DNA of 64,000 bases from Parvibaculaceae bacterium Mf 1.05b.01 (GTDB lineage: Bacteria > Pseudomonadota > Alphaproteobacteria > Parvibaculales > Parvibaculaceae): NCBI GenBank assembly GCA_000509225.1, contig BAOK01000002.1:190496-254495 (forward strand), written 5' to 3'. Below the pieces are notes generated by a model, which worked only from the letters and a program-made list of their open reading frames with translations, was not told the DNA's origin and searched no databases. The stretch's first letter is position 1, and each line of letters opens with the position of its first letter. Positions 27,358-31,290 of the stretch are shown here, piece by piece. Made by a program: the position numbers and the translations under genes.

Positions 27358-28176
27358 TCAGACTTTGAACGTGGCGATGACGGGCGCATGGTCGGACGGT
27401 TTTTCCCAGCCGCGGGCGTCGGTCAGGACTTCCATTGATTTGGCGGCGCCTTCCATGGCCGGTGTCACCCAGATATGATCCAGGCGACGGCCCTTGTTTG
27501 CGGCCTTCCAGTCTTTCGCGCGGTAGCTCCACCAGGAATAGAGTTTCTCATCATGGGGAACGAATTCGCGCATGACGTCGATCCAGGAATGGGATTTCTG
27601 CACACGCTCAAGATGTTCCACCTCGATTGGTGTGTGGCTCACGACCTTTAGAAGCTGCTTGTGGGACCAGACATCGTGCTCAAACGGGGCGATGTTGAGG
27701 TCGCCCACGAGCACCATCCTGGATGTCTTCTTGTTCTTGTGATTTTTGTACCAGGCTTCCATCTCGTTGAGGAAGCTGAGCTTGTGCGCGAACTTTTCGT
27801 TCTTGTCCACGTCAGGCTCATCGCCGCCTGCGGGCACATAAAAATTGTGGATGCGCACATCACCAGCGTCGGGCACGGTCGCAGCGACGTGACGCGCGTC
27901 GCCTTTGTTGCAGAATTCGCGGGCTTCGATATTGATGAGCGGCACACGGCTTACTGTTGCTACACCGTGATAGGCTTTTTGTCCGTTAAGCGCGATGTGT
28001 TCATAGCCCGCTTTCTTAAACGCCTTCTCTGGAAACACATCATTGTGGCATTTGATTTCCTGCAGGCAGAGCACGTCGGGCGTCTGTTCCTTGAGGAATT
28101 TCTCGACGCTCTCAATGCGCAGGCGCACGGAGTTGATGTTCCAGGTGGCGACTTTAAGTGTTTTTAGTTTTGGCAC
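27358..28176 (-). CDS. xthA: Exodeoxyribonuclease III
   Basis: A 272-residue AP endonuclease and 3'-5' exonuclease for base-excision repair. Visible motifs are KVATWNINSVRLR (metal-site Asn13), LQEIKC (Glu40), GDLNIAP and the C-terminal SDHAPV with the catalytic Asp-His. The start is a GTG at 28176, which has GAGG 9 bases upstream; a GTG at 28191 has none. It lies on the same strand as, and 69 bp after, a hypothetical gene. Confidence 0.95.
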   Translation of the reverse strand: MPKLKTLKVATWNINSVRLRIESVEKFLKEQTPDVLCLQEIKCHNDVFPEKAFKKAGYEHIALNGQKAYHGVATVSRVPLINIEAREFCNKGDARHVAATVPDAGDVRIHNFYVPAGGDEPDVDKNEKFAHKLSFLNEMEAWYKNHKNKKTSRMVLVGDLNIAPFEHDVWSHKQLLKVVSHTPIEVEHLERVQKSHSWIDVMREFVPHDEKLYSWWSYRAKDWKAANKGRRLDHIWVTPAMEGAAKSMEVLTDARGWEKPSDHAPVIATFKV

Positions 28177-28245
28177 AGGTGGGAGCCTCACGAAAATTGA
28201 GTGCGACAGATCGTAAGTCTAAGCAGGAAACGAAGAGACCGGTGA

Positions 28246-28857
28246 TCAGAAGATGTTGAAGGTAAGGCCTGCAACGCCGATGGGCCAGCGTCCTTGTTCG
28301 AAAAGTTTAAGGCGCAACAAGAAAGGATGATCTTCGTCGGCGCCAATGGCTGTTGCCAGCGCTGCTCCATGTACTGCCTGCATCGCGGCGCCTGCGGCGG
28401 CGATGGCGATTTCCATGTCCTCGACGCCCCAGATGTTGGCGGCGGTCTCTGCCGCGGTGCGCACTGCAGGCTCGGCCTCTGATGCGGCATAGGTGAAGCC
28501 GATCTCAAAGGCCTCTTCGCTTAAGACGTCAAGCAGGTCCGTGGAGAGAGAGGCGCGCAGACCTTCTTCGGCCTCCCAGGCGCCACCATTCCAGTCACCA
28601 CTTTCGGCGGCGATGATGGCGTCGTCCCAATTGGAGATGCGGGCGGGCCGCGCGTCGGGGAAGCCGAGTGCATCGAGATAGGCCTGCCCCGCTGATTTGG
28701 TGTGGCTACGGAGCGGTGTGCCCAGTTCCGTAAACCAGGGGATCTCGGCGACCTGCCGACCAAAGTCGCGCAGGAGGGCCAATGCCGGCATTTCAAGCGC
28801 CAGCTCTTCCAGTTCTGCGTCGGAAAGGGGTTCGCCCCCTGAATAGTCCATGCTCAT
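28246..28857 (-). CDS. Conserved hypothetical protein, acidic and Ala-rich
   Basis: A 203-residue protein with no recognised domain. The N-terminal half is mixed (PLSDAELEELALEMPALALLRDFGRQVAEIPWFTEL), the middle is acidic, and residues 120-185 form an Ala-rich helical segment. No signal peptide is seen. ATG 28857 has AAGGA 4 bases upstream, and a second ATG six bases on is nearly as good. It is divergent from the 46-bp repeat array. Confidence 0.75.
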   Translation of the reverse strand: MSMDYSGGEPLSDAELEELALEMPALALLRDFGRQVAEIPWFTELGTPLRSHTKSAGQAYLDALGFPDARPARISNWDDAIIAAESGDWNGGAWEAEEGLRASLSTDLLDVLSEEAFEIGFTYAASEAEPAVRTAAETAANIWGVEDMEIAIAAAGAAMQAVHGAALATAIGADEDHPFLLRLKLFEQGRWPIGVAGLTFNIF

Positions 28858-28926
28858 GGGGTCCTTATATCGCGCTCTCTGGGACACCCAAAGGGATTAA
28901 GCGTGTGCGGTACATATAGGAGGTTG

Positions 28927-29085
28927 GACATGAAAACGCCCCGCCTCCCAAAACGGAAAGATTAGGCGGGCGGACATGAAAACGCTCCGCCTCCCAAAAC
29001 GGAAAGATTAGGCGGGCGGACATGAAAACGCTCCGCCTCCCAAAACGGAAAGATTAGGCGGGCGGACATGAAAACGCCCCGCCTA
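28927..29085. repeat. 46-bp tandem array with possible micro-ORFs
   Basis: Three full 46-bp units start at 28927, 28973 and 29019; a partial fourth starts at 29065 and merges into a long hairpin. Units two and three are identical; unit one differs by one base. Read on the plus strand, each unit has ATG and 11 codons then TAG: 28930-28965, 28976-29011 and 29022-29057, encoding MKTPRLPKRKD once and MKTLRLPKRKD twice. The fourth ATG at 29068 opens 24 codons to 29142. Only the first has an ideal ribosome site (AGGAGG, 6 bases upstream). Read on the minus strand, each unit holds a CCGCCT/AGGCGG hairpin followed by GCGTTTTC, resembling weak terminators behind the small RNA at 29070-29218. Confidence 0.9.
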
Positions 29086-29218
29086 AGGGGGGATGGCGGG
29101 GCGTTCATGCGCTTACTCTGCGCTGGCACCGAGAGGGGATAGATCGGTGCCGGGGGCGGGCGGAAAACTCACTGCGAGGAGTTCGGGGGGCGTCGTCCTC
29201 AAGCTTTCCGCCTGTCTG
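29070..29218 (-). ncRNA. Candidate structured small RNA with terminator
   Basis: On the minus strand, from about 29218 downward, three strong hairpins follow each other. Hairpin I pairs 29205-29212 with 29159-29166 (GGCGGAAA/TTTCCGCC). Hairpin II pairs 29144-29151 with 29125-29132 (GGCACCGA/TCGGTGCC). A small GCGC stem lies at 29109-29123. The last hairpin pairs 29095-29104 with 29074-29083 over 10 bp and is followed by TTTTC, a terminator. All three large loops are C-rich (CCCCCC, ATCCCCTC, CCCCCC), which could pair with Shine-Dalgarno sequences. A promoter lies just upstream. No coding frame fits. I do not recognise a known family. Confidence 0.55.
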
Positions 29219-29224
29219 AGACTA

Positions 29225-29253
29225 TAGATAGGACTGAGAGCGCCCACGTTCAA
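29225..29253 (-). promoter_or_regulatory. Candidate promoter of the small RNA
   Basis: On the minus strand TTGAAC (29253-29248) and TATCTA (29230-29225) are spaced by 17 bp. The -35 box matches 4 of 6 bases and the -10 box 4 of 6. The predicted start at about 29218 lies 6 bases before hairpin I. No gene on this strand would otherwise need a promoter here, because the next one begins 370 bp further on. Confidence 0.5.
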
Positions 29254-29422
29254 TGCAATCTGGTGAAAATCACTAACAGTTCATAAATGGGTGAGACCGC
29301 ATTAACCCTATGATTTTCTTGATGTTTCCGGTGTTTTCGCTGGCTCACTGCCAGTTTTTGCAAGGTCTGTTGCGCGGCCTTAACCCCTCCAGGAACCTAA
29401 ACCTTAAGTCCTATTTTGACCC

Positions 29423-29916: not shown

Positions 29917-31290
29917 TTAGGAAACGCCGAGGCTCTCTGCCGTGAGGTCGAGCGCCTTCACCGCCAGACCGAAGAGCTCATCAATCTCCGGCTTTGTGAT
30001 GGAGAGCGGCGGGGACAGAACCATGGTGTCGCCAATGGCCCGCATGATGAGACCGTTTTCAAAACAATGGTCGCGGCAAATGCCACCGGCATCGCCAAAA
30101 CGTTCGCGGGTCTCTTTGTTCTTCACAATCTCCATGGCGCCAAGCAAGCCGACACCGCGGGTCTCGCCGATGATCGTGTGCTGGCTCAACTCACTAAGTT
30201 TGCCCTGGAAATAGTTACCGATCTCGCCGCCGGTTTTTTCCACCAGGTGATCGCGCTCTATGATGTCGATATTGGCAAGGGCGACCGCGCAGGCGACCGG
30301 GTGCCCTGAATAGGTGAAGCCGTGGGACCATTCTTCATCTGCGTTGAAGAGCGTCTCGCCCATGCGCGGGCCGACGGCGACAGCAGAGAGCGGTTGATAG
30401 CCAGACGTCATGCCCTTCGCCATGGACATGCTGTCGGGCTCGATATTGTAGGTCTCTGAGCCGAACCATTTGCCCGTCCGGCCAAAGCCGCAGATCACTT
30501 CATCCACATGAAGCAGCACGTCGTGCTTTTTGCAGATGCGCTGGATTTCCGGCCAATAGGTTTCCGGCGGGATGACAAGACCGCCAGCGCCCTGCACAGG
30601 CTCAGCGAAGAAGGCGGCGACATTGTCGGCGCCCAATTCCAGGATTTTGGCTTCGAGTGTCTGCGCAACCTTCAAGCCAAATTCGGCCGGATCGCTGTTG
30701 CCGCCTTCGCCATACCAGTATGGATAGTCGATATGGGTGAAGCCCGGCAGCGGCAGGTCGGCCTGCGGATGCATGGAGGGAATGCCGGAGAGGGACGCCG
30801 CTGTCATGGTGACGCCATGGTAGGCCTGTTTGCGAGCAATGATGGTTTTCTTGGTCTTCTTGCCCTGGAGGTTCCAGAAGAAGCGGATCATTTTGACCGC
30901 GCTGTCATTGGCCTCCGAGCCGGAATTGGCAAAAAAGAACTGGTTCAGGTTTCCCGGTGTCAGTGTACTGAGTTTTTCCGAGAGCTCGGCCACATAGGGA
31001 TTGGTCGTCTGGAAGAAGTTATTGTAGTAGGGCAGTTCGGTGAGCGCCTTGGCGCCTGCTTCTGCAATTTCCTTGCGGCCATAGCCTGCATTCACGCACC
31101 AGAGGCCCGCCATGCCGTCGATCAGACGTTGGCCTTCAGAGTCATAAAGATAGACGCCCTCTGCGTGGGTAATGACGCGCGCACCCTTGGCGGCGAGTTC
31201 GTGGTGCGTTGTGTAGGGATGCAGGTGATGGGCGGCATCCATTTCCTGCCAGCGTTTGGTCTGGTTTGAACGTGTGGCGGCTTGAGACAT
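29917..31290 (-). CDS. Class III PLP-dependent aminotransferase, putrescine/omega-amine type
   Basis: A 457-residue fold-type I aminotransferase. It has the substrate-loop segment NNFFQTTNPYVAELSEKL, FFANSGSEANDSAVKM near the phosphate site, HVDEVICGFGRTGKWFG with the cofactor Asp, and the PLP lysine in SMAKGMTSGYQPL. It resembles putrescine--pyruvate aminotransferases (SpuC) and other omega-transaminases. Upstream on the same strand are a glutamine-synthetase-like and a PuuD-like gene, supporting polyamine breakdown. Inverted repeats lie 17-84 bp upstream of its start. Confidence 0.9.
   Translation of the reverse strand: MSQAATRSNQTKRWQEMDAAHHLHPYTTHHELAAKGARVITHAEGVYLYDSEGQRLIDGMAGLWCVNAGYGRKEIAEAGAKALTELPYYNNFFQTTNPYVAELSEKLSTLTPGNLNQFFFANSGSEANDSAVKMIRFFWNLQGKKTKKTIIARKQAYHGVTMTAASLSGIPSMHPQADLPLPGFTHIDYPYWYGEGGNSDPAEFGLKVAQTLEAKILELGADNVAAFFAEPVQGAGGLVIPPETYWPEIQRICKKHDVLLHVDEVICGFGRTGKWFGSETYNIEPDSMSMAKGMTSGYQPLSAVAVGPRMGETLFNADEEWSHGFTYSGHPVACAVALANIDIIERDHLVEKTGGEIGNYFQGKLSELSQHTIIGETRGVGLLGAMEIVKNKETRERFGDAGGICRDHCFENGLIMRAIGDTMVLSPPLSITKPEIDELFGLAVKALDLTAESLGVS

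What the first reader, a model, noticed from the sequence alone, without database searches (positions are those of the whole stretch)
29070..29253. Candidate novel small RNA with three C-rich loops
Seen: a promoter-like TTGAAC-N17-TATCTA, then three strong hairpins on the minus strand, the last a terminator with a 10-bp stem and TTTTC. The three loops carry runs of C that could pair with Shine-Dalgarno sequences. Known: several small RNAs of Firmicutes and rhizobia use C-rich loops this way. Inferred: this is a trans-acting regulator of translation. I know no family that matches.
Basis: partly seen in the sequence, partly recalled or inferred. Interest (0 to 1): 0.7.

Follow-up and report, generated by a model that had tools for sequence, protein, structure and literature searches.

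The report
Ancient alphaproteobacterial small RNA, C-rich loops
The stretch holds the gene of a small regulatory RNA, missing from the main RNA-family library, that has kept its shape, its C-rich loops and often its place in the chromosome across many families of Alphaproteobacteria, and it probably works by sticking to the G-rich start sites of messenger RNAs.

Summary
In detail: TTGAAC-N17-TATCTA, then on the minus strand three strong hairpins with C6, C4 and C6 loops, the last an intrinsic terminator; fold z -5.8. It is a real RNA gene. Covariance models match 37 of 40 genomes of the family, Parvibaculaceae, and 54 of 385 Alphaproteobacteria genomes; 30 of the 54 are sources of the model. 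Stems covary. A like promoter stands at a similar distance in 24 of 24 family sequences and 10 of 29 others (7.9% of shuffles). Most loci checked lie at ftsK-lolA-(C26)-sRNA-(unnamed protein)-xth; 14 loci with tight gaps there lack the RNA. Convergent genes follow it in four loci, against a cis leader. No Rfam family reaches its cut-off at the RNA in the loci scanned; ar7, 6C and sX13 are weak lookalikes. It works most like Xanthomonas sX13. The trans-acting, anti-Shine-Dalgarno mechanism is inferred: pairing with start regions barely exceeds that of shuffled loops, and there are no expression data. A new RNA family of a known kind.

The parts
29248..29253 (-). -35 element TTGAAC
   Evidence: sequence; TTGAA kept in all 24 Parvibaculaceae/Rhodobiaceae sequences examined, TTGAA or TTGCA in many others
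29225..29230 (-). -10 element TATCTA
   Evidence: sequence; conserved in the genus and in Parvibaculum with small changes
29254..29316 (-). block upstream of the -35 conserved in most of the genus, possible regulator site (function inferred)
   Evidence: genus alignment of 7
29070..29218 (-). predicted small RNA, about 149 nt; start and end predicted, not measured
   Evidence: fold z -5.8; models R1-R3
29159..29212 (-). hairpin 1; C6 run of its loop at 29185-29190
   Evidence: inner helix changes in step among relatives
29125..29151 (-). hairpin 2; loop UCUAUCCCCUC at 29133-29143
   Evidence: CCCCUC kept in 49 of 53 orthologues
29109..29123 (-). small hairpin GCGC-AGAGUAA-GCGC
   Evidence: 98.0% of cells paired in 53 orthologues
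29071..29105 (-). hairpin 3, intrinsic terminator; C6 loop run at 29087-29092; UUUU at 29071-29074
   Evidence: 97.5% of cells paired, 12 of 13 pairs with two-sided changes
28246..28887 (-). downstream neighbour: 213-aa protein without a Pfam or NCBIfam match (first GTG; the true start may lie further in)
   Evidence: downstream of the RNA in other families too
27358..28191 (-). exodeoxyribonuclease III (xth), second downstream neighbour
   Evidence: TIGR00195 over cut-off
29917..31290 (-). class-III aminotransferase, upstream gene conserved in Parvibaculaceae
   Evidence: PF00202

Best explanation
A stand-alone small RNA gene: transcribed from the TTGAAC/TATCTA promoter at about 29218 and ended by hairpin 3. 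It acts in trans by pairing its loop-exposed C runs (H1 C6, H2 CCCCUC, H3 C6) with G-rich Shine-Dalgarno or leader sequences, mostly lowering translation. Shown by comparison: a gene with its own promoter-like and terminator elements, selection on the structure, C-rich H1 and H2 loops kept in nearly all of 53 orthologues, an old locus. Inferred: transcription, the trans action, the sign of regulation and the targets. A helper protein such as Hfq, whose gene is present in this genome, is possible but not required.
For: Fold z -5.8. All 7 genomes of the genus hold it, and all 7 fold alike. Family: 34 of 40 with a model made from 4 genus sequences, 37 of 40 with R2, which is built mostly from this family. 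Class: 54 of 385 at E<=1e-3, of which 30 are sources of the model R3 and 24 are not. Covariation: in the MAFFT alignment of 23, 91.4% of cells paired against 85.3% in shuffles and 21 of 44 pairs with two-sided changes (0/500 shuffles); in 53 model-aligned sequences 93.4% against 71.2% and 40 of 44 pairs, slid controls 38-47%. Promoter-like match of 9 or more of 12 in 34 of 53, 7.9% of shuffles. H1 loop columns 0.777 identical against 0.553 for H1 stems. Convergent genes with Pfam matches end 12-27 nt past the RNA in 4 loci. No ORF of common length inside. sX13, with a like layout, is shown to repress G-rich targets (PMC3771888, passages read).
Against: No expression data. Pairing with 353 start regions: H2 excess 39.0 against 25.2 +/- 8.6 for shuffled loops, H3 25.5 against 20.9 +/- 9.0, H1 2.0 against -16.4 +/- 10.0, so mostly explained by base composition; H1 pairs no better with starts than with coding stretches. 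H3 loop columns (0.636) are less conserved than H3 stems (0.722), H2 loop and stem are equal (0.808), and H3 has a run of 4 or more C in only 35 of 53. The compact form in other families lacks a C-rich H1 loop. In most loci the next gene lies on the same strand, which also fits a leader. The UUUUC tract is short.
Confidence: 0.62

Rival explanations
1. Cis-acting leader or attenuator of the downstream 213-aa protein and xth: hairpin 3 is a conditional terminator read through on a signal.
For: The RNA lies on the same strand as and directly upstream of the 213-aa gene in 14 of the 20 strong class hits outside the family (46 bits or more; coordinates), and in all 13 Parvibaculaceae loci compared.
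Against: In 4 loci the next gene is convergent, 12-27 nt away: aminopeptidase N in L111 and L115 (genus g200 of f126), a 2OG-Fe(II) oxygenase in L056 and L058 (two MAGs, family not known). In f87 the 213-aa gene lies 6-7 kb away. No search for an antiterminator fold was made.
Confidence: 0.15
2. A protein-binding or sponge RNA: the C-rich loops titrate an RNA-binding protein or another sRNA and do not pair with mRNAs.
For: H1 loop conserved more than H1 stems; target pairing only weakly above composition controls.
Against: I know of no protein that binds such hairpin loops in Alphaproteobacteria (recalled, not searched); studied RNAs with C-rich loops pair with G-rich mRNA sites (PMC3771888, PMC5869019, passages).
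Confidence: 0.15
3. A divergent member of the known alphaproteobacterial family ar7 (Rfam RF02342).
For: Closest alphaproteobacterial lookalike, 20.9 bits, E 0.053, and 24.6 bits in Parvibaculum sedimenti L067; [quoted passage not shown]
Against: Far below the 60-bit cut-off; 0 of 385 class genomes reach it, and none of the 5 weak ar7 genomes at E<=0.01 is one of the strong R2 genomes; polA neighbourhood, the ar7 hallmark per PMC3771888, 0 of 34.
Confidence: 0.06
4. Chance inverted repeats in a GC-rich intergenic region.
For: A tandem-repeat array with terminator-like units lies just downstream.
Against: Covariation, spread and promoter.
Confidence: 0.01

Closest known systems
sX13 of Xanthomonas (Rfam RF02232)
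   Same: 115 nt, three stem-loops with apical 4C/4C/5C loops; represses mRNAs with G-rich motifs near the start, without Hfq (PMC3771888, passages read).
   Different: Rfam score 17.4 against a cut-off of 50; another class; sX13 lies beside polA, this RNA between lolA/C26/aminotransferase and xth; extra GCGC hairpin here.
ar7 (Rfam RF02342; Smr7C in Sinorhizobium, recalled)
   Same: Alphaproteobacterial, C-rich apical loops.
   Different: 20.9 against 60 bits; polA-linked per PMC3771888, here 0 of 34.
6C RNA (RF01066; Actinobacteria, recalled)
   Same: Stem-loop with a run of six C; the H3 terminator aligns to it.
   Different: 23.8 bits in the window and 33.9 at best in a relative, cut-off 47; three C-rich loops plus a small hairpin here.
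anti-hemB (RF02837, Burkholderia)
   Same: Lowest E-value of the Rfam scan of the region (0.0028), over hairpin 3 and the first downstream repeat (29022-29102).
   Different: 23.6 against a cut-off of 49.5; the match spans the terminator and the strain's own repeat array, not the RNA.
GsrN of Caulobacter
   Same: Six C in a 5' loop that pairs with a G-rich mRNA leader (PMC5869019, passages read).
   Different: [quoted passage not shown] here a TTGAAC/TATCTA promoter, and no such gene among the 10 neighbours scanned. BLASTn homologues of GsrN were limited to Caulobacteraceae in that paper.
SmelA075/SmelA099-type rhizobial RNAs with CCUCCUCCC loops
   Same: Three or four hairpins that repeat an anti-Shine-Dalgarno loop (PMC3927594, one passage read).
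   Different: Loop motifs here are CCCCCC and CCCCUC; sequences not compared.

Membership tests
ar7 (RF02342) | Rfam gathering score of 60 bits | tested here: not met
   20.9 bits in the window, 24.6 in L067; 0 of 385 class genomes over it
ar7 (RF02342) | gene beside polA | tested here: not met
   polA found in 34 of 35 genomes; on another contig or more than 200 kb away from the RNA in all 34
ar7 (RF02342) | three stem-loops with C-rich apical loops | tested here: met
   shared with unrelated RNAs, so not diagnostic
6C (RF01066) | Rfam gathering score of 47 bits | tested here: not met
   23.8, best relative 33.9
anti-hemB (RF02837) | Rfam gathering score of 49.5 bits | tested here: not met
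   23.6, E 0.0028; 22.1 in L043
sX13 (RF02232) | Rfam gathering score of 50 bits | tested here: not met
   17.4 bits
sX13 (RF02232) | three stems with apical C-rich loops (4C/4C/5C) | tested here: met
   C6/C4/C6
sX13 (RF02232) | represses mRNAs with G-rich motifs at the start | not testable with these tools
   needs reporter fusions; pairing statistics weak
GsrN | general-stress sigma factor promoter (consensus recalled, GGAAC-N16/17-CGTT) | tested here: not met
   read by eye: TTGAAC-N17-TATCTA, kept in relatives
GsrN | C-rich 5' loop | tested here: met
   H1 loop, run of 4 or more C in 52 of 53 orthologues
GsrN | sequence homology to GsrN | not tested
   no GsrN sequence was compared
any Rfam 15 family | match at gathering score at this RNA | tested here: not met
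   window; 9 loci with the RNA and 17 loci with R2 hits at E<=1, none over cut-off; at gathering, 5 of the 20 loci and all 9 hold the RNA, no match

The most novel reading that the evidence does not exclude
An RNA as old as much of the class Alphaproteobacteria whose hairpin-2 loop (frequent class form AUCCCCUCC) imitates the anti-Shine-Dalgarno tail of 16S rRNA (GAUCACCUCC, recalled) and so tunes translation start globally; the other two loops add a preference for mRNAs with G runs.
Probability: 0.2. Interest if true: 0.82.

Novelty: new member of a known kind. Interest (0 to 1): 0.62.

Why it matters
Few regulatory RNAs are traceable by structure and locus across many families of Alphaproteobacteria (general knowledge, not searched). 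This one has a usable covariance model, a syntenic address and natural absences with the flanks intact, so its function can be tested in culturable carriers such as Parvibaculum. It would add an alphaproteobacterial case to the recurrent theme of C-rich loops aimed at G-rich start sites. It has no Rfam 15 match, so annotation that relies on Rfam misses it.

Tried and rejected
ar7 membership: weak alignment, cut-off and polA synteny fail. 6C, anti-hemB, Scr3202, sX13, Atu_C4, SorY: all far under cut-off. Plus-strand RNA (loops would show GGGGA): disfavoured by promoter, U-tract and G-U count. Small ORF: closed ORFs inside the 53 transcripts range from 0 to 49 aa with no common length. Paralogues: one copy in the own genome at E<=10. 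L038 and L043 (G027, G020) are the only R2 copies of their genomes but lie beside other genes; moved gene or paralogue is open. Weak second matches exist in some Parvibaculum genomes (22-29 bits) and were not followed. BLASTn beyond the genus gave only 22-34-nt scraps, hence the models.

Target pairing: a first run with starts chosen by Shine-Dalgarno match was biased; the control with first ATGs and 30 shuffles of each loop left only a slight excess. Four weak R3 hits were not syntenic (L205, L212, L215, L218) and may be chance; they are counted in the 54. A phylum-wide draw (269 genomes) gave 11 hits, all of the same class; the output does not say how many of the 269 belong to other classes, so it is no measured control. 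Paper searches, seen as listings (some capped), without a description of this RNA: (open-licence PMC only). Passages, not whole papers, were read of PMC6234868, PMC3771888, PMC5869019 and PMC3927594.

Full report
Observation. On the minus strand the window reads TTGAAC (29253-29248), 17 nt, TATCTA (29230-29225), then from about 29218 three strong hairpins and UUUUC at 29074-29070. The stretch 29218-29070 folds at -69.1 kcal/mol against -46.65 for shuffles, z -5.80, 0 of 200 as good. Hairpin 1 (29212-29159) has a C6 run, hairpin 2 (29151-29125) the loop UCUAUCCCCUC, hairpin 3 (29105-29073) a C6 run. The promoter scan did not list the site, but conservation supports it.

Known families. Rfam 15 at gathering cut-offs gives only a tRNA in the whole window. 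With E up to 10 the region gives lookalikes under their cut-offs, among them 6C 23.8 of 47 bits, anti-hemB 23.6 of 49.5 (lowest E, 0.0028, over the terminator and the first repeat after it), ar7 20.9 of 60, sX13 17.4 of 50. At E<=1, 9 loci with the RNA and 17 loci with R2 hits gave nothing over cut-off. At gathering, 20 loci around the 213-aa gene (5 of which hold the RNA) and 9 loci with the RNA gave no match.

Genus and family. BLASTn with 201 bases matched 11 of 61 genomes; 7 of these are the 7 genomes of the window's genus, the other 4 are scraps of 22-34 bases. All 7 fold alike, with the inner helix of hairpin 1 changing in step. A model from 4 of them (R1) matched 34 of 40 genomes of the family at E<=0.05. 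A genome-contig scan with a pattern from hairpin 2 and the small hairpin gave 23 stretches; contig lengths tie several to family members and name the family as Parvibaculaceae/Rhodobiaceae (for example Parvibaculum sedimenti). One of the 23, L052 (Microbacterium), looks like chance. R2, built from 23 sequences, nearly all of this family, matched 37 of 40. The misses are both genomes of genus g4 (G009, G013) and G061 (71% complete); two of the 37 hits (G035, G021) are partial. In G009 the flanking genes are in place and only a terminator-like hairpin stands where the RNA should be.

Structure under selection. In the MAFFT alignment of 23 sequences 91.4% of cells pair (shuffles 85.3%, slid structures 37-49%) and 21 of 44 pairs show changes on both sides (0 of 500 shuffles), although further pair types do not exceed shuffles (112 of 500). 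In 53 sequences aligned to the model 93.4% of cells pair (shuffles 71.2%, slid 38-47%), and 40 of 44 pairs have two-sided changes; this alignment was fitted to the structure and leans to it. G-U cells exceed A-C cells, 58 to 31 and 147 to 46, as expected if the minus strand is the RNA. Mean column identity in the 53: hairpin 1 loop 0.777, its stems 0.553; hairpin 2 loop and stem both 0.808; hairpin 3 loop 0.636, its stem 0.722; small stem 0.947. A run of 4 or more C occurs in or at the edge of the H1 loop in 52 of 53, H2 in 53, H3 in 35; H2 keeps CCCCUC in 49 of 53.

Promoter. The best match to TTGAAC-N16-19-TATCTA upstream scores 9 or more of 12 in 34 of 53 orthologues, against 7.9% of dinucleotide shuffles, mostly with 16-17 nt spacing and 4-7 nt before the model start. 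By group: 24 of 24 Parvibaculaceae/Rhodobiaceae sequences and 10 of 29 others. The query hexamers are the window's own and many sequences are close kin, so these are not independent events. Others carry variants such as TTGCAA-N17-TAGCTT. There is no ORF of common length inside the transcript.

Class-wide spread. R2 matched 33 of 385 genomes of the class at E<=0.01. R3 (53 sequences) matched 54 of 385 at E<=0.001: 30 are sources of R3, one more is of the window's genus, 23 are neither. The 54 carry 28 family labels. Strict filters and rough E-values make the numbers approximate. Synteny tests the 23: I fetched 20, and 16 lie beside a lolA, C26 peptidase or xth homologue in the expected orientation, 4 do not. 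Of the other 3, G405 and G328 have lolA and C26 upstream, and G240 has only the 213-aa gene, about 1.3 kb downstream. Several of these families have a shorter RNA with a hairpin 1 that lacks the C-rich loop.

Locus. In the window the order on the minus strand is ftsK, lolA, C26 peptidase, a glutamine-synthetase homologue, class-III aminotransferase, a glyoxalase-fold gene, the RNA, a 213-aa protein without Pfam or NCBIfam match, xth. In other families the RNA often sits directly between lolA or C26 and the 213-aa gene or xth. Of 20 strong R2 hits outside the family (46 bits or more) 14 have the 213-aa gene within 400 nt downstream on the same strand (coordinates). Of 40 loci taken around the 213-aa gene, mostly from genomes without a hit, 14 have lolA or C26 upstream, no significant R2 or R3 match and a gap of only about 70-170 nt between the matched stretches (L151-L153, L155, L159-L161, L163, L169, L170, L174, L175, L177, L179): the RNA is absent there. 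With the RNA the gap is about 500 nt or more (L154, L158, L162, L171, L176).

Trans or cis. The repeated same-strand neighbour suggests a leader RNA as a rival. But the next gene is convergent, 12-27 nt past the model end, in four loci: aminopeptidase N in L111 and L115 (both genus g200 of f126), a 2OG-Fe(II) oxygenase in L056 and L058 (two MAGs whose RNA resembles that of f5; family not tested). In L038 and L043 the RNA lies beside other genes altogether. With its own promoter and terminator a separate transcript is the better reading.

Mechanism. sX13 of Xanthomonas has three stems with 4C/4C/5C loops and needs these motifs and G-rich motifs in its targets for repression, without Hfq (PMC3771888, passages). 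GsrN activates katG through a six-C loop (PMC5869019, passages). By analogy I infer pairing of the loops with G-rich leaders. In 371 mechanically called genes of the window plus 400 kb of its genome, GGGG occurs in 40 start regions against 14 and 13 in control stretches, but starts were chosen there by Shine-Dalgarno match. With first ATGs (353 genes) H2 pairs at -10 kcal/mol or better with 64 start regions against 24 and 26 in controls, H3 51 against 29 and 22, H1 92 against 106 and 74; shuffled loops of the same composition give most of this. The target side is therefore weak evidence. Hfq is encoded.

Novelty. No Rfam match, and ten searches of open-licence papers, seen as listings, showed no description. 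Subscription papers were not covered and RNA-seq lists in supplements were not read, so the transcript may have been listed somewhere without a name. I file it as a new RNA family of a known kind.

Noticed in passing
28926-29084: Three and a half tandem copies of a 46-bp unit (98% matches) directly after the terminator; the unit overlaps the 3' arm of hairpin 3 and copies look terminator-like. In the stretch aligned, G002 shows one similar unit and the other five genomes none that aligns.
   Followed up: partly
28246-28887: 213-aa protein without Pfam or NCBIfam match, yet found in 78 of 385 class genomes and often beside xth: an unnamed conserved family.
   Followed up: partly
29254-29316: Conserved block upstream of the -35 in most of the genus (GGGTTAA ... 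TTTATAAACTGTTAGTGATTTTC); several Parvibaculum sequences have GTAAACA-like elements at about the same place. Possible regulator site, unexplained.
   Followed up: no
L038:1486-1639, L043:1505-1654: In G027 and G020 the only R2 copy lies at another locus and has a different hairpin 1; moved gene or paralogue. R1 gave a weak second match in G027 (27.9 bits).
   Followed up: partly
L201-L220: Compact form in many families: short hairpin 1 without C-rich loop, hairpin 2 with a UCCCC-type loop, terminator loop with a C run.
   Followed up: partly
L149: G009 (genus g4 of the same family) keeps aminotransferase, 213-aa gene and xth but lacks the RNA, leaving a terminator-like hairpin.
   Followed up: yes
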